Assembly (NCBI GenBank): GCA_025928345.1
Contig: JAICJR010000013.1
Coordinates: forward strand, 1-32,598
Origin: Thermoleophilaceae bacterium
GTDB lineage: Bacteria > Actinomycetota > Thermoleophilia > Solirubrobacterales > Thermoleophilaceae
Direction: 5' to 3'
Length of the DNA: 32,598 bases
Shown piece by piece: positions 1 to 10,669 of this stretch. The position numbers and the translations under genes were made by a program. Every line of letters starts with the position of its first letter. Position 1 is the stretch's first letter. The notes under the pieces were generated by a model that saw only the letters and a list, made by a program, of their open reading frames with translations, searched no databases and was not told the DNA's origin.

Positions 1-1853
1 CGATCATCCAGCTCCTGCTCGGCAACATGGGGCGCCCAGGCGGCGGCATCCTGGCGCTTCGCGGCCACGCGAACATCCAGGGCTCGACGGACATCCCCAC
101 GCTTTTCAACATCCTGCCGAGCTACATCCCGATGCCGCACCCGCAGCCGGAGCCCACGCTCGACAAGTTCGTGGAGCTGAACGGCCCGAGCACCGGCGCG
201 TGGGGGAGCCTCAAGTCGTACACGGTCAGCCTGCTGAAGGCCTGGTGGGGAAGCGCCGCCACGGAGGAGAACGACTTCTGCTTCAACTACATCCCGAAGA
301 TCGACGGCGACCACTCGAACTACGCCACGATGCTCAGGATGCTCGACGGCGAGATGAAGGGGTTCTTCGTCGTCGGCGAGAACCCGGCCGTGGGATCGGC
401 GAACGGCAAGCTCCAGCGACTCGCGATGGCAAAGCTCGACTGGCTCGTGGTGCGGGACACCAACATGATCGAGACCGCGACCTTCTGGCACGACTCCGAC
501 GAGATCGAGACCGGCGAGCTCGTGACGGAGGACATAGGCACCGAGGTGTTCTTCATGCCGGCCGCCGCCCACACCGAGAAGGACGGCACCTTCACGAACA
601 CCCAGCGCCTGCTGCAGTGGCACCACAAGGCGGTCGAGCCGCCGGAGGAGTGCCGCTCGGAGCTTCACTTCTTCCACGAGCTGGGGAAGAAGATCCGCGA
701 GAAGCTCGCTGACTCTGAGGACGAGCGCGACCGGCCGATCCTCGACCTCACCTGGGACTACCCGACCGTAGGTGTGCACCAGGAGCCGGACGCCGAGTCG
801 GTGCTCCAGGAGATCAACGGGCGCAACCTCGAGACGGGCGAGTTCATTCCGCAGTACGAGGCGCTGAAGGACGACGGCTCGACGTCCTGCGGGTCCTGGC
901 TCCACACCGGTATCTACAAGGACGGCGTGAACCAGACGGCGCGCAAGAAGCCGCACACCGAGCAGAACTGGGTGGCGCCGGACTGGGCCTGGTCATGGCC
1001 GAAAAACGTCCGCATCATGTACAACCGGGCGTCCGCGGGCCCGGACGGCAAGCCGTGGTCCGAGCGCAAGAAGTACGTGTGGTGGGACGAGGAGCAGGGC
1101 AAGTGGACGGGCTACGACTCGCCCGACTTCACGCCCGACAAGGAGCCCGACTACAAGCCGCCGCGAGGCGCGAGCGGGACCGAGGCGCTCACCGGGCGCG
1201 AGCCGTTCATCGTGCACCCTGACGGGCTGGGCTGGCTCTACTCGCCGGCGGGTCTCGTGGACGGGCCGTTGCCCACGCACTACGAGCCGCAGGAGTCGCC
1301 GTTCGAGAACCCGCTCTACGGCCAGCAGCAGAACCCCGCCCGGCAGCGCTACGACCGCGAGGAGAACATCTACAACCCGTTCCTGAGCGAGGTCTTCCCG
1401 TACGTTCTCACGAGCTACAGGCTCACCGAGCACCACACCGCGGGCGGCATGTCGCGCACGGTGCGCTACCTCTCGGAGCTCCAGCCCGAGCTGTTCTGCG
1501 AGGTGAGCCCGGAGCTGGCGGAGGAGCGCGGGCTGCAGCACGGCGAGTGGGCCACGGTCGTGACCGCGAGGAGCGCGATCGAGGCGCGCGTGATGGTGAC
1601 CGACCGGATCAAGCCGATCGAGGTGCAGGGCCGCACGCTCCACCAGGTGGGCCTGCCGTACCACTGGGGCAAGCGCGGCGTGGTGACCGGAGACACGGTG
1701 AACGACCTCTTCTCGCTCGCGCTCGACCCGAACGTGCACATCCAGGAGGTGAAGGCCGCCACCTGTGACATCCAGCCGGGGCGGAGGCCGCGCGGGAAGG
1801 CGCTGCTCGACTACGTGCAGGCCTACAGGGACAGGGCGGGCGCCCATGCCTAG
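1..1853 (+). CDS. Formate dehydrogenase alpha subunit (molybdopterin oxidoreductase), 5' truncated
   Basis: This is the C-terminal part of a large molybdopterin-guanine-dinucleotide enzyme that oxidises formate to CO2. The reading frame is open from base 3, so the gene starts before the window, and an internal ATG at 27 is not the start. Codons at the very edge read IIQLLLGNMGRPGGG followed by LRGHANIQGSTD, a stretch typical of FdnG/FdoG-type formate dehydrogenases. The segment VGENPAVGSANGKLQRLA and the following LDWLVVRDTNMIETATFW fit the same family. From about nt 1420 the dinucleotide-binding C-terminal domain is visible (GGMSRTVRYLSELQPELFCE and the LPYHWGKRG region). The N-terminal [4Fe-4S] motif and the catalytic Cys or Sec lie outside the window, so selenium use cannot be judged. 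The stop overlaps the start of the iron-sulfur subunit. The family call is firm; formate as substrate is inferred from family resemblance. Confidence 0.93.
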   Translation, partial: IIQLLLGNMGRPGGGILALRGHANIQGSTDIPTLFNILPSYIPMPHPQPEPTLDKFVELNGPSTGAWGSLKSYTVSLLKAWWGSAATEENDFCFNYIPKIDGDHSNYATMLRMLDGEMKGFFVVGENPAVGSANGKLQRLAMAKLDWLVVRDTNMIETATFWHDSDEIETGELVTEDIGTEVFFMPAAAHTEKDGTFTNTQRLLQWHHKAVEPPEECRSELHFFHELGKKIREKLADSEDERDRPILDLTWDYPTVGVHQEPDAESVLQEINGRNLETGEFIPQYEALKDDGSTSCGSWLHTGIYKDGVNQTARKKPHTEQNWVAPDWAWSWPKNVRIMYNRASAGPDGKPWSERKKYVWWDEEQGKWTGYDSPDFTPDKEPDYKPPRGASGTEALTGREPFIVHPDGLGWLYSPAGLVDGPLPTHYEPQESPFENPLYGQQQNPARQRYDREENIYNPFLSEVFPYVLTSYRLTEHHTAGGMSRTVRYLSELQPELFCEVSPELAEERGLQHGEWATVVTARSAIEARVMVTDRIKPIEVQGRTLHQVGLPYHWGKRGVVTGDTVNDLFSLALDPNVHIQEVKAATCDIQPGRRPRGKALLDYVQAYRDRAGAHA

Positions 1854-6044: not shown

Positions 6045-7124
6045 GTGCCGAGCGGCGTCATCTTCTTCACGGGATTTCCGGGCTTCATCGGGCGCCGGCT
6101 CGTCAGCGAGCTCCTCGCACATGACTCCGAGGCGCGCATCGCCGCTCTCGTCGAGCCGCGCTTCGCCTCGGCCGCCCGCGAGGCTGCGACCGAGATAGCG
6201 CCGGACCGGATCGAAATCGTCGAGGGCGACATCGCCGACCGTCGCCTCGGACTGGCGGACGATGTGTACGAGCGCCTGGTTGCCGAGACCATCAGCGCCT
6301 ACCACCTCGCCGCGATCTACAACCTGGCGGTGCCGCTCGAGATCGCGCAGCGCGTGAACGTGGACGGCACCGGCAACGTGCTCGAGCTGTGCGCTCGCTG
6401 CGAGCGGCTCACCAGACTCAACTACGTGAGCACCGCATATGTGGCCGGCGACCGCCACGGCGTGGTGTACGAGCACGAGCTGGCGCTCGGCCAGGGCTTC
6501 AAGAACCACTACGAGTCCACGAAGTTCCAGGCCGAGCTCTGGGTGCGGGGGATGATGGACAAGGTGCCCACCACCATCTACCGGCCCGCGATCGTGGTGG
6601 GCGACTCGAAGACGGGGGAGACGCAGAAGTTCGACGGGCCGTACTACTTCCTGCGCACGATCGCGCGCTCGGTGCAGCAGCGGATCCCGATCCCGCAGTT
6701 CGGCCGCGCGGCGGCGCCGTTCAACTGCGTGCCGCTCGACTTCATCGTGGACGCGATGGTGGCCGTCGCCGACGATCCGGAGGCGCTCGGCAAGACGCTG
6801 CACCTCGTGGACCCCGAGCCGGTCACGGCGGCCGAGGTGGCGCGCATCTTCAGCCGTGAGTACGCGCACCGCGATCCGCAGCTGCGGCTGCCGCCGGCAC
6901 TGGTGGAGAACGCACTGCGGATCAAGGCCGTCCGCGACCTATACGGCGGCGCGCCGCACGAGGCGATCCGCTACCTCAACCACCCGGTGCGCTTCGACAC
7001 CCGCAACGCCACCGACGTGCTGTCGCGGCACGGGCTGCGCTGTCCGCGGCTCGAGGAATACGCGGGCCCGGTCGTGCAGTTCTTCAAGGCACATGAGCAC
7101 GATCCCGCGCTGATGCCAGCGTGA
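6045..7124 (+). CDS. Extended SDR family NAD(P)-dependent reductase/epimerase
   Basis: A 359-residue extended short-chain dehydrogenase/reductase. The nucleotide-binding motif is TGFPGFIG near the N-terminus. A GDI acidic turn follows (IVEGDIADRR), then the AAIYNL strand, and the catalytic pair appears as YESTKF (Tyr-x3-Lys). The C-terminal half (LHLVDPEPVTAAEVARIF) is the substrate domain. The overall pattern is closest to the 'NAD-binding 4'/thioester-reductase-like group, which includes fatty acyl-CoA reductases and sugar-nucleotide epimerases; the substrate cannot be read from sequence. The start is the GTG at 6045, because the Rossmann motif begins only six residues later and the upstream extension overlaps another gene. 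A TACACT hexamer ends 8 bases before this GTG. The 3' end overlaps the convergent transporter gene by 41 bases. Confidence 0.85.
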   Translation: MPSGVIFFTGFPGFIGRRLVSELLAHDSEARIAALVEPRFASAAREAATEIAPDRIEIVEGDIADRRLGLADDVYERLVAETISAYHLAAIYNLAVPLEIAQRVNVDGTGNVLELCARCERLTRLNYVSTAYVAGDRHGVVYEHELALGQGFKNHYESTKFQAELWVRGMMDKVPTTIYRPAIVVGDSKTGETQKFDGPYYFLRTIARSVQQRIPIPQFGRAAAPFNCVPLDFIVDAMVAVADDPEALGKTLHLVDPEPVTAAEVARIFSREYAHRDPQLRLPPALVENALRIKAVRDLYGGAPHEAIRYLNHPVRFDTRNATDVLSRHGLRCPRLEEYAGPVVQFFKAHEHDPALMPA

Positions 7125-8048: not shown

Positions 8049-8570
8049 CTAATCCTCCGCGGTCTTCTGAAACAGGATGTGGTCCGACCACTCGCCCGCG
8101 ATCTGCAGGTAGCGCGGCGCCACGCCGATGCGCGTGAAGCCGTTCTTCTCAATCACGCGCTGGGAGGCGACGTTGTGAAGAAGCGTGCCGGCTTCGACGC
8201 GGTGCAGCCCGAGCTCACCGAACGCGCGCTCGCACACGAGGCCGAGCGCCGCGGTGGCGCAGCCCTGGCCGTTGTGGTCCTTCGCCACCCAGTAGCCCAC
8301 GTTGCAGCTCTGGAATGCGCCGCGCACGACGTTCGACAGGTTGATCGCTCCCACCACGTTGCCGCCGGTGAGGATCACGAACGGATATGCGCTGCCGGAC
8401 GAGCGCCGATCGCTGAGCTGAGCGATGTGCCGGCGCTGCCCCTCGAACGTGTAGAACGCCTCGGGCCGCATCGGCTCGAGTGGCGCGAGGAAGTCGCGGT
8501 TCTCGGCGTACAGCTGCGCCAGCGTGCGGGCGTCTGTGACCGCGAGCGGGCGAATGTCCACCGTTGCCAT
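8049..8570 (-). CDS. GNAT N-acetyltransferase, RimJ/RimL type
   Basis: A 173-residue acetyltransferase of the GNAT superfamily, which transfers acetyl from acetyl-CoA to an amine. The pattern is that of the RimJ/RimL branch: an N-terminal DIRPLAVTDARTLAQLY, a central VGYWVAKDHNGQGCATAAL containing the acetyl-CoA pyrophosphate loop (here NGQGCAT for the usual Q/RxxGxG/A), and LGLHRVEAGTLLHNVASQRV followed by EKNGF, the usual C-terminal motif. The substrate may be a ribosomal-protein N-terminus or a small amine; the sequence does not decide. The ATG at 8570 lies 7 bases after the stop of the upstream di-metal oxidase gene, so the two are probably co-transcribed. Confidence 0.88.
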   Translation of the reverse strand: MATVDIRPLAVTDARTLAQLYAENRDFLAPLEPMRPEAFYTFEGQRRHIAQLSDRRSSGSAYPFVILTGGNVVGAINLSNVVRGAFQSCNVGYWVAKDHNGQGCATAALGLVCERAFGELGLHRVEAGTLLHNVASQRVIEKNGFTRIGVAPRYLQIAGEWSDHILFQKTAED

Positions 8571-8577
8571 TGGCGGC

Positions 8578-9843
8578 TCAGCGTCCGAACAGCTTCTGCA
8601 TCCGCCAGAGCGCGATCGGGTTGCCCCGCGGGCGAAGCTTGCCCTTCAGCATCAGGGCACGCGGGTCGGCGCGGCCGCCCATCACGTCCACCCAGTCCGC
8701 GTAGCTGCAGCGGAGCGTCAGATCCGTGTGCGGCGCCTGCCCGCGGGACACGCTCGCGTCGCCGTTCTCGACGCGCAGGTACCACGGCTCCGCGTCGCTG
8801 AACTCCCACTGGATCGTCGTGGGCCGCCCGTGCGAGTGGCGCGGGTCCACCGACGTCCGCAGCGAGTCGAACAAGAGCTCGAGCACCTCCGGCTCGCTCG
8901 AGGGCCGGCCGTTCTTCTCGCCGAGCACACCGGCCTCCAGCAGCACGAGCGCTCGCCGCACGCGCTCCTCCACCGAGAGGTCAAAACGGATCGGCATGGC
9001 GGGCATCTGCTCGAGCGGCATGCCGGCGCTGCGCATCTTCGTCTCCATCGACCTCATGCCCTCGGCGAAGATCTCCTCGATCGTGAAGCCGAACACCTCG
9101 CTGTAGCGGCGGTCCCAGTTCGGCGGGACGAACACGGCGGCGGTGTAGGGGAACAGCTCGCGCAGGAGCTCGGCCACCGCGTCGCGGCATTCGGGGTCCT
9201 CCTCTACGAGGTCTGAGAGCAGCTTCACGCCGAAGCCGATGTGTCGCTGCTCGTCGAGCGCCACGTTCGCCATGCCGGAGCGGAAGCCGGGCAGGATCTC
9301 GCGCTCCTCGAGGTAGCTCTCGATGAAGTGCTGGCCCGGCTGGGCGAGCGAAGCCTCGATCACGATGTGGTAGAGCGCGATGCCCTGCGCGAGCTTGGTG
9401 CGCGAGCGGTCGCGGCGCAGCTCGTCGGCCATCCGGTCGAGCCGCGCGAACACCTTCTTGAAGCCCCACGTGAGCTGCGGGCGCGTGGCTTCGAGCGAGC
9501 CGGCGTAGCTCTCGCCGTTCTCCACGACCTCGCGCATGAAGCGCCCGAAGAACACTGCGTGGCGCGCCTCGTCCACCTGCTGAGTCGCGAGGAAGTACTT
9601 GTGCTCCTCGCGCGGAGCGGCGTCGATGAACGGCGACAGGTTGTCCGCCACCGAGTCCTCGCCGTGAAGGAACATCGCGTAGTTCCAGAGCGCGGCTTGG
9701 CGCTCCAGCTCGCTGAAGTCCTCGCGCCACTGCCGGCGGTCCTCGCCGAAGTCGATCTCCGTGGCGCTCCAGTTGCCCTTCTCCCAGCGGCGATACAGGT
9801 CGTCGTAGGAGACGCGCTGGAGCATCTGAAGGGGCTGCGCCAT
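8578..9843 (-). CDS. R2-like di-metal oxidase fused to an SCP2 sterol-carrier domain
   Basis: A 421-residue two-domain protein. Residues 1 to about 290 form a ferritin-like four-helix bundle of the ribonucleotide-reductase-R2/ligand-binding-oxidase kind. The metal-site motifs are in order: E62 (HGEDSVADNL), E92xxH95 (DEARH), E163 (IEASLAQPGQ) and E198xxH201 (DEQRH). All six usual carboxylate/histidine ligands are therefore accounted for. Residues of about 295-421 look like an SCP2/sterol-carrier domain (TTIQWEFSDAEPWYLRVENG, then DLTLRCSYADWVDVMGGRADP and a GKLRPRGN turn). Such domains bind fatty acyl or lipid ligands. The fusion suggests an oxidase acting on a lipid-like substrate, possibly a fatty acid bound near a di-iron or Mn/Fe centre; this is inference. 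The ATG is at 9843, right beside a perfect dyad in the divergent region. The GNAT gene follows 7 bases downstream. Confidence 0.85.
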   Translation of the reverse strand: MAQPLQMLQRVSYDDLYRRWEKGNWSATEIDFGEDRRQWREDFSELERQAALWNYAMFLHGEDSVADNLSPFIDAAPREEHKYFLATQQVDEARHAVFFGRFMREVVENGESYAGSLEATRPQLTWGFKKVFARLDRMADELRRDRSRTKLAQGIALYHIVIEASLAQPGQHFIESYLEEREILPGFRSGMANVALDEQRHIGFGVKLLSDLVEEDPECRDAVAELLRELFPYTAAVFVPPNWDRRYSEVFGFTIEEIFAEGMRSMETKMRSAGMPLEQMPAMPIRFDLSVEERVRRALVLLEAGVLGEKNGRPSSEPEVLELLFDSLRTSVDPRHSHGRPTTIQWEFSDAEPWYLRVENGDASVSRGQAPHTDLTLRCSYADWVDVMGGRADPRALMLKGKLRPRGNPIALWRMQKLFGR

Positions 9844-9883: not shown

Positions 9884-10669
9884 ATGCCCACCAACAATGA
9901 ACCCCTCAGCGGCCGGCGCGCTCTAGTCACAGGTTCGGCCACCGGCATCGGCCGTTCCACGGCCAAGCGGCTCGCCGCCGACGGAGCGTCCGTGATCGTC
10001 AACTACGTCGGCCCGCCGGACCAGGCCGAGAGCGCGGTGAAGGAGATCGAGGGCGAAGGCGGCCGCGCGCTCGCCATCGCCGCGGACGTCTCCAACGAGG
10101 AACAGGTGCAGGCGATGTTCGCGCAGGCGCTCGAGGAGCTCGGCGGCCCGATCGACCTGCTCGTGAACAACGCCGGTATCGAGAAGCCGTTCAACGTCGT
10201 CGACATGCCTCTCGAAGAGTGGAACAAGGTGATCGCGGTGAACCTCACCGGCGCCTTCCTCTGCACGCGCGAGGCGGCTCGCGGGATGACGAAGGCCGGG
10301 ATCCCGGGCGCGATCATCAACGTGTCGAGCGTGCACGAGGTGATCCCGTGGCGCGAGTTCAGCCACTACTGCGCCTCGAAGGGCGGGATGAAGCTGTTCA
10401 TGCAGACAGTGGCGCGCGAGCTCGCGCCTCAGGGCATTCGCCTTGTGAACGTCGCGCCGGGCGCAATCCTCACGCCGATCAACCAGGACCTGATCGACGA
10501 CGCGGAGAAGCGCAAGGCCGTGGAGGACGAGATCCCGCTCGGCCGCACCGGCAAGCCGGAGGAGATAGCGGCGGCGATCGCCTGGCTGGCGAGCCCTGAA
10601 GCGGACTACGTCGTGGGCTCGACGCTGTTCGTGGACGGAGGGATGACGCTGTTCCCGAAGTTCATCTGA
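9884..10669 (+). CDS. Glucose 1-dehydrogenase (SDR family)
   Basis: A 261-residue classical short-chain dehydrogenase. The cofactor motif is TGSATGIG, then NNAG (LLVNNAGIEKP), the catalytic Ser in NVSSVHEVIPW, and Tyr-x3-Lys in HYCASKGG. The surrounding wording, SSVHEVIPWREFSHYCASKG, the NVAPGAILTPIN segment and the C-terminal GSTLFVDGGMTLFPKF, closely follows the Bacillus-type glucose 1-dehydrogenase that oxidises glucose to gluconolactone with NAD(P). It is probably a cytoplasmic tetramer. The N-terminal Gly-rich loop with an adjacent VNYVGPPD strand suggests possible NADP use, but this is not certain. The RpiR-type regulator follows 58 bases downstream on the same strand, which fits a role in sugar use. 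Confidence 0.85.
   Translation: MPTNNEPLSGRRALVTGSATGIGRSTAKRLAADGASVIVNYVGPPDQAESAVKEIEGEGGRALAIAADVSNEEQVQAMFAQALEELGGPIDLLVNNAGIEKPFNVVDMPLEEWNKVIAVNLTGAFLCTREAARGMTKAGIPGAIINVSSVHEVIPWREFSHYCASKGGMKLFMQTVARELAPQGIRLVNVAPGAILTPINQDLIDDAEKRKAVEDEIPLGRTGKPEEIAAAIAWLASPEADYVVGSTLFVDGGMTLFPKFI

What the first reader, a model, noticed from the sequence alone, without database searches (positions are those of the whole stretch)
8578..9843. Di-metal ferritin-like oxidase fused to an SCP2 lipid-binding domain
The four-helix metal site is complete (E62, E92xxH95, E163, E198xxH201), and the same chain carries an SCP2-like domain. R2-like ligand-binding oxidases are known to hold a fatty acid near the metal site, so a covalently attached lipid carrier suggests a substrate-delivery arrangement. 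That biochemical reading is inference. The GNAT gene 7 bases downstream could act on the same pathway.
Basis: partly seen in the sequence, partly recalled or inferred. Interest (0 to 1): 0.55.

Follow-up and report, generated by a model that had tools for sequence, protein, structure and literature searches.

The report
Metal oxidase joined to lipid carrier
An actinobacterium encodes, in one protein chain, an oxygen-using two-metal enzyme and a lipid-carrying domain, a conserved combination that offers a concrete way to test what this puzzling enzyme family does in cells.

Summary
The 421-aa gene at 8578-9843(-) encodes an R2lox-like ferritin-fold domain (residues about 9-279; best fold match R2lox 7qbp, Z 31.6) and a C-terminal SCP2-type lipid-binding domain (about 341-419). 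The fusion is no isolated oddity: by hand count 91 of 151 sampled genomes of the order carry it full length, as do 13 genomes of two families outside the class, and on a quick tree it fits one origin. Elsewhere it often lies beside acyl-CoA synthetase-like or acyl-CoA dehydrogenase genes. The GNAT gene is a genus-level neighbour only. Best reading: a dinuclear O2-activating oxidase acting on a long-chain lipid that its own SCP2 domain holds; this activity is inferred, not shown. The cavity tyrosine reported as conserved in R2lox (Y175) is Gln171 here and NCBIfam cut-offs are missed, so I call it an R2lox-like sister subfamily with a new domain architecture. Targeted paper searches showed no description of the fusion. 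New variant of a known kind.

The parts
8578..9843 (-). R2lox-like / SCP2 fusion gene, 421 aa
   Evidence: Pfam; NCBIfam; model
9007..9819 (-). R2lox-like ferritin-fold oxidase domain, residues 9-279
   Evidence: 7qbp Z 31.6, rmsd 2.5, 258 aligned, model 9..279
8824..9006 (-). linker region, residues 280-340, less conserved (mean pairwise identity 0.41 over 276-340)
8587..8823 (-). SCP2 / alkylsulfatase-C lipid-binding domain, residues 341-419
9658..9660 (-). codon of metal ligand E62 (GkR2loxI E69)
9649..9651 (-). codon of V65, cross-link valine (GkR2loxI V72)
9559..9570 (-). codons of E92 to H95, metal ligands ExxH (GkR2loxI E102, H105)
9370..9372 (-). codon of Y158, cross-link tyrosine (GkR2loxI Y162)
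9355..9357 (-). codon of metal ligand E163 (GkR2loxI E167)
9331..9333 (-). codon of Q171, in place of the conserved R2lox cavity tyrosine Y175
9241..9252 (-). codons of E198 to H201, metal ligands ExxH (GkR2loxI E202, H205)
8049..8570 (-). GNAT acetyltransferase, RimJ-like below cut-off; neighbour, probably not part of the function
9884..10669 (+). divergent short-chain dehydrogenase, also near the fusion gene in two relatives (same genus L074/L087; L040/L075)
6045..7124 (+). NAD_binding_4 / thioester-reductase-like SDR (fatty-acyl-reductase-like by inference), also near the fusion gene in the same two relatives

Best explanation
The protein is a dinuclear-metal (Mn/Fe or Fe/Fe), O2-activating oxidase of the R2lox kind that carries its own lipid-binding domain. 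Shown: the predicted fold of both domains, the complete and conserved metal-ligand set, the conserved Val/Tyr cross-link pair, the small channel residue A167, and the conserved fusion. Inferred: the metal pair activates O2, a first turnover cross-links V65 to Y158, and the enzyme then performs two-electron oxidation (hydroxylation or desaturation) of a long-chain aliphatic substrate such as a fatty acid, acyl lipid or alkane. Also inferred: the SCP2 domain binds the alkyl chain and holds it close to the channel mouth, so that a poorly soluble substrate, or the product, is handled in cis. The product would feed into acyl-CoA metabolism.
For: N-domain: R2lox entries rank first in the fold comparison (Z 26.7-31.6) above RNR R2 (26.2 and below); profile hits to R2lox at E down to 5.7e-30. 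Ligands plus V65, Y158, A167 and Q171 are invariant in the 38 sequences of A1, and these ten residues are intact in 60 of 65 fused rows of a wider set. [quoted passage not shown] one paper reports alkane oxidation by GkR2loxI (PMC10867098). The C-domain is closest to alkylsulfatase C-terminal domains (among them SdsA1 entries with dodecanol or decane-sulfonate) and SCP2. pTM 0.89 for the whole chain suggests a defined domain arrangement (inference). Neighbours: AMP-binding, acyl-CoA-synthetase-like gene in 12 of the 42 named loci; acyl-CoA dehydrogenase in 9 of 18 fused loci outside the class against 0 of 16 unfused paralogue loci. Fused rows fall in one clade.
Against: No activity, metal or ligand data were found for this subfamily. 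Cavity Tyr175 is Gln here. NCBIfam's R2lox cut-offs are not reached (121 against 194 bits). The GkR2loxI alkane claim is weak: crude extracts, and the E202A/H205A ligand mutant lost only part of the activity. In the window the neighbours are mixed. The 12 acyl-CoA-synthetase loci are close kin and count as few independent events. Of the 9 acyl-CoA-dehydrogenase loci, 5 are the copies that have lost metal ligands (L061, L062, L064, L086, L111), and the intact fused copies L053 and L058 of two of those genomes have no such neighbour: the neighbourhood thus speaks for a lipid link of the fused chain more than for oxidation. Pocket orientation was not measured.
Confidence: 0.5

Rival explanations
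1. The oxidase is real, but the SCP2 domain serves as a membrane or partner docking module, or a product acceptor, and does not deliver substrate to the metal site.
For: The SCP2 domain of UbiJ is modelled to adsorb to membranes and release lipid there (passages of PMC9499169). The SCP2 domain is less conserved than the oxidase domain (mean pairwise identity 0.47 against 0.65).
Against: One-chain linkage kept through a single clade and a confident whole-chain model, pTM 0.89, fit a fixed working arrangement, though they do not prove delivery.
Confidence: 0.25
2. The substrate is an isoprenoid lipid (quinone, hopanoid or carotenoid type), as in the SCP2-assisted steps of ubiquinone synthesis, and not a fatty acid or alkane.
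For: The E. coli Ubi metabolon pairs hydroxylases with the SCP2 protein UbiJ (passages of PMC9499169); UbiJ structures are among the fold matches of the C-domain.
Against: Nearest C-domain matches are alkylsulfatases. Among the ten recurring neighbour clusters that I named by Pfam none is a quinone or isoprenoid gene; smaller clusters were not named.
Confidence: 0.12
3. The chain is mainly a lipid-binding or sensing protein and oxidation is secondary or lost.
For: Five fused copies in one clade have lost E62 and Tyr158, and in some cases H95 or V65, yet keep the SCP2 domain and sit beside acyl-CoA dehydrogenases (Pfam SCP2 in L061 and L086).
Against: The window copy and 59 other fused rows keep every one of the ten residues. 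Two genomes with a degenerate copy also keep an intact fused one (G081, G135).
Confidence: 0.08
4. It is a ribonucleotide reductase small subunit with an extra domain.
For: Pfam Ribonuc_red_sm matches, and several annotated plasmid relatives are called ribonucleotide-diphosphate reductase subunit beta.
Against: One same-genus genome has a B12-dependent class II RNR (NF005122, 1387 bits, cut-off 859), which needs no small subunit (recalled). The own genome holds only two PF00268 genes, this one and its paralogue, and no large-subunit match (88% complete). R2lox outranks RNR R2 in fold and profile.
Confidence: 0.02

Closest known systems
R2-like ligand-binding oxidase (R2lox; GkR2loxI 4hr0, Mtb 3ee4, S. 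erythraea 7qbp, S. acidocaldarius 6qrz and 7qbk)
   Same: Fold, six metal ligands, Val/Tyr cross-link pair, small residue A171 (A167 here)
   Different: Extra C-terminal SCP2 domain; conserved cavity Tyr175 is Gln171; below NCBIfam R2lox cut-offs; 20-25% identity in the structure alignments
SCP2 domain of human MFE-2 (1ikt) and rabbit SCP2 (1c44)
   Same: Fold of the C-terminal domain; MFE-2 likewise has an SCP2 domain at the end of a lipid enzyme (recalled)
   Different: Partner enzyme here is a dinuclear metal oxidase
Alkylsulfatase C-terminal domain (SdsA1 2cfu/2cfz, Pisa1 2yhe)
   Same: Best fold matches of the C-domain; an SCP2-like domain at the end of an enzyme for alkyl chains
   Different: Catalytic domain there is a metallo-beta-lactamase-fold sulfatase (recalled)
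UbiJ with the Ubi metabolon hydroxylases
   Same: SCP2 domain proposed to bind the lipid tail of intermediates (passages of PMC9499169)
   Different: Separate proteins; quinone pathway
WS/DGAT with C-terminal SCP-2 domain in Bacteroidota (passages of PMC10351704)
   Same: Lipid enzyme carrying a C-terminal SCP2 domain
   Different: Acyltransferase, not an oxidase

Membership tests
R2lox | Six carboxylate/histidine metal ligands at GkR2loxI positions E69, E102, H105, E167, E202, H205 | tested here: met
   Aligned to 4hr0; invariant in the 38 sequences of A1
R2lox | Cross-link valine and tyrosine (V72/Y162) | tested here: met
   V65 and Y158 invariant; the valine is reported as completely conserved in R2lox (PMC6060897)
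R2lox | Small residue A171 that lets the ligand channel form | tested here: met
   A167 in 65 of 65 fused rows; role from PMC4118035
R2lox | Conserved tyrosine lining the ligand cavity (Y175) | tested here: not met
   Q171 in 62 of 65 fused rows, E in the other 3. In a separate unfused clade of 8 rows (L073, L105, L122-L125, L127, L128) 7 have Y and L123 has H
R2lox | Score above an NCBIfam R2lox cut-off | tested here: not met
   Best 120.9 bits against 194
R2lox | R2lox structures as best fold match | tested here: met
   7qbp Z 31.6 and 3ee4 Z 30.9 against RNR R2 at 26.2 and below
R2lox | Mn/Fe cofactor, bound fatty acid, ether cross-link formed | not testable with these tools
   Needs purified protein
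SCP2 superfamily | Profile and fold match | tested here: met
   PF02036 38.5 bits against 21.3; PF14864 44.8 against 27; fold matches 2cfz Z 13.5, 8af3 Z 13.1, 1ikt Z 12.6
SCP2 superfamily | Binds lipid in a hydrophobic tunnel | not testable with these tools
   No coordinates or biochemistry at hand
Ribonucleotide reductase small subunit (NrdB/NrdF) | Cognate class I large subunit in the genome | tested here: inconclusive
   No PF02867 match in the own genome, which is 88% complete; the same-genus genome's match is a B12-dependent class II RNR
Ribonucleotide reductase small subunit (NrdB/NrdF) | RNR R2 closer than R2lox by profile and fold | tested here: not met

The most novel reading that the evidence does not exclude
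A monophyletic subfamily of R2lox-like oxidases in two classes of Actinomycetota works as a self-loading lipid oxidase: a covalently attached SCP2 domain takes a long-chain acyl or alkyl substrate and feeds it to a dinuclear site with a rebuilt cavity (Gln for Tyr175). Its acyl-CoA gene neighbourhoods would then point to the unsettled physiological role of R2lox chemistry, and the ligand-less fused copies would act as regulatory or heterodimer partners.
Probability: 0.28. Interest if true: 0.75.

Novelty: new variant of a known kind. Interest (0 to 1): 0.47.

Why it matters
Passages of a 2014 and a 2018 paper call the physiological function of R2lox unknown (PMC4118035; PMC6060897). The one later claim I saw (alkanes, 2024) rests on crude extracts and a partial mutant effect. 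A natural fusion to a lipid carrier, kept across many genomes and set beside acyl-CoA genes in some lineages, ties this chemistry to lipids and gives a direct assay design: extract the bound lipid, feed it back, and look for an O2-dependent product.

Tried and rejected
RNR small subunit: rejected, see rivals. GNAT as pathway partner: among loci held, found only in the window's own genome (L130) and the same-genus place L074/L087; many loci have short flanks, so this is a partial test. Fusion as an assembly artefact: rejected, since the match runs full length in many separate genomes. Pocket-to-channel orientation: not possible, as no coordinates are exposed. The fold second look of the whole model listed only the oxidase domain, so the C-terminal part was folded and searched alone. 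A search for columns fixed in fused but rare in unfused rows gave only W53 and G127, no clear interface patch. Plasmid search: 40 records with a match, 0 covering 80% of the query, so no fusion seen there. The first tree labelled L066, L059, L082 and L115 as unfused inside the fused clade (4 changes). Pfam does find SCP2 in L066; L059 and L115 are cut by a contig end and L082 is frame-broken, so these three were set aside, after which one change suffices. The tree is a quick one (SH-aLRT 89 on the key branch, several long branches flagged), so a single origin is likely, not proved. Phyla other than the window's own were not searched with the genome search, and domain-architecture databases were not at hand.

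Rows dropped: alignments A1 and A2 use 37 of the 42 named loci plus the window; L011 (run of X), L038 and L043 (partial), L042 (broken frame) and L044 (distant) were left out. The tree left out 19 rows named in its script (near-copies and partial or broken rows) and rows with an oxidase match under 200 residues. The neighbour gene calls come from a crude script, not a gene finder. L040 and L075, and L005 and L079, and L009 and L081 look like the same genes seen twice.

Full report
What is there. The gene at 8578-9843 on the minus strand is one open frame of 421 aa. Pfam gives Ribonuc_red_sm (residues 15-230), Alkyl_sulf_C (321-418) and SCP2 (343-419), all above their cut-offs. NCBIfam's five best families are all R2-like ligand-binding oxidase, but the top score (120.9 bits) is below its curated cut-off of 194. 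Solved structures matched by sequence are R2lox proteins first (the stretch 17-235 for 4hr0), and more weakly SCP2 proteins (1ikt E 8.2e-4, 352-417).

Metal site. In the profile alignment with GkR2loxI (4hr0), E62, E92, H95, E163, E198 and H201 stand on the ligands E69, E102, H105, E167, E202 and H205 named in PMC10867098 (section 14, part 1 of 2 read). V65 and Y158 stand on V72 and Y162, the ether cross-link pair, and A167 on A171, the small residue that lets the channel form (passages of PMC4118035). All nine are invariant in the 38 sequences of A1, the window plus 37 relatives, and so is Q171. Of 65 fused rows of a wider set, 60 keep all ten. The cavity tyrosine reported as conserved in R2lox (Y175) is Gln171 here: Q in 62 and E in 3 of 65 fused rows, and Q in 28 of the 43 rows then labelled unfused. 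In a separate unfused clade of 8 rows (L073, L105, L122-L125, L127, L128) 7 have Y and L123 has H.

Structure. The whole-chain model is confident (pLDDT 91.9, pTM 0.89). R2lox structures lead the second-look ranking (7qbp Z 31.6, rmsd 2.5 over 258; 3ee4 Z 30.9; lowest R2lox entry 26.7), with ribonucleotide reductase R2 at 26.2 and below. The C-terminal 137 residues folded alone (pLDDT 94.5, pTM 0.85) match alkylsulfatase C-terminal regions (2yhe and 2cfz, Z 13.5) and SCP2 (8af3 Z 13.1, 1ikt Z 12.6) (Foldseek E down to 8.2e-10). I could not open the coordinates, so I cannot say whether the SCP2 pocket faces the metal channel. The high pTM suggests, by inference, a defined arrangement of the two domains.

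How widespread. Of the 42 named loci found by similarity, nearly all bear titles of Solirubrobacterales, Thermoleophilia or unplaced Actinomycetota MAGs; 37 gave fused rows for the alignment. In 151 genomes drawn from the order, 114 have a match at E 1e-10 or better; by my hand count of the listing 91 of 151 have a match running from residue 23 or earlier to 403 or later. In 396 genomes drawn from the phylum, 44 have a match; by hand count 22 are full length in the same sense, 13 of them in genomes marked only same phylum, in families coded f9 (11) and f14 (2). No genome marked same class but of another order is among the 44. On a quick tree of the oxidase domain 66 fused and 39 unfused rows need one change (support 89), once one mislabelled row is corrected and three cut or broken rows are set aside; before that the count was 4. 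One origin of the fusion is the simplest reading; the patchy spread leaves loss and horizontal transfer both open. The own genome also has an unfused paralogue (L002, 39% identical).

Surroundings. A crude gene map of 73 loci shows a class II tRNA synthetase gene (glycyl by my reading; Pfam) in 32 loci and a Lon protease gene in 19, on either side of the fusion gene: probably inherited position, not function. An AMP-binding, acyl-CoA-synthetase-like gene is present in 12 of the 42 named loci, in 7 of these 12 directly upstream on the same strand; they are close relatives. Outside the class, 9 of 18 fused loci have acyl-CoA dehydrogenase genes beside them, 7 with one on each side, against 0 of 16 loci of unfused paralogues with mostly shorter flanks. 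But 5 of those 9 are the copies that have lost metal ligands, and the intact fused copies of two of those genomes (L053, L058) lack such neighbours. The window itself has a divergent SDR, a RpiR-type regulator, GNAT, SLAC1 and a NAD_binding_4 / thioester-reductase-like gene. The SDR and the reductase-like gene recur near the fusion gene in two relatives (same genus L074/L087, and L040/L075); GNAT and SLAC1 were found only in the own genus among the loci held.

Not a ribonucleotide reductase. The same-genus genome G406 has a B12-dependent class II enzyme (1387 bits to NF005122, cut-off 859), and all 12 of 12 good-quality genomes of the family have a large-subunit match. The window's own genome shows none, but it is 88% complete in 317 contigs.

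Function. Shown: the parts, their conservation, and their neighbours. Inferred: an O2-activating dinuclear oxidase that acts on a long-chain lipid held by its own SCP2 domain. R2lox is described as binding a long-chain fatty acid in a channel to the metals and as having unknown physiological function (passages of PMC6060897). A 2024 paper reports alkane oxidation by crude GkR2loxI, but its ligand mutant lost only part of the activity, so I give that little weight. An SCP2 domain in the ubiquinone hydroxylation complex (UbiJ; passages of PMC9499169) and SCP2 domains fused to wax-ester synthase homologues (passages of PMC10351704) are precedents for the arrangement. Results against this reading: Tyr175 is missing, the SCP2 domain is less conserved than the oxidase (0.47 against 0.65 mean pairwise identity), a clade of fused copies has lost ligands, and part of the acyl-CoA neighbourhood belongs to those copies.

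Novelty. Searches that pair the oxidase with the domain found nothing to the point: R2lox with SCP2, 0 papers; R2-like ligand with sterol carrier protein, 0; RNR small subunit with SCP2, 1 paper, unrelated by its title; R2lox with fused, 3 papers, of which the one looked into uses the word for a His tag; and a mixed search with 386 papers, of which only the 12 listed were seen, none holding R2lox. The library lacks most subscription journals. I rate it a new variant of a known kind.

Noticed in passing
L061, L062, L064, L086, L111 (family f9 genomes): Five fused copies in one clade have lost the ligand equivalent to E62 (V or I), Tyr158 (C or T) and in some H95 or V65, yet keep SCP2 and sit beside acyl-CoA dehydrogenases; genomes G081 and G135 also hold an intact fused copy. 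They may be pseudoenzymes or heterodimer partners.
   Followed up: partly
L067, L110, L090: A separate deep fused branch with a longer C-terminal tail beyond the SCP2 domain (468-475 aa) and weaker similarity to the SCP2 part of the others (Pfam SCP2 in L067 and L110).
   Followed up: partly
L082 (G516, contig of 5.06 Mb): The fused gene is split between two reading frames; oxidase part in one, SCP2 part in the other.
   Followed up: no
window 6045-7124 (+): Stand-alone NAD_binding_4 / thioester-reductase-like SDR matching the N-terminal half of PRK07201 (below cut-off), also near the fusion gene in two relatives.
   Followed up: partly
G000, whole genome: No ribonucleotide reductase large-subunit match in the window's own genome, probably because the assembly is incomplete.
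   Followed up: partly
L002 1489-2400 (-): Unfused R2lox-like paralogue in the same genome with the same ligand set and Gln in place of Tyr175.
   Followed up: partly
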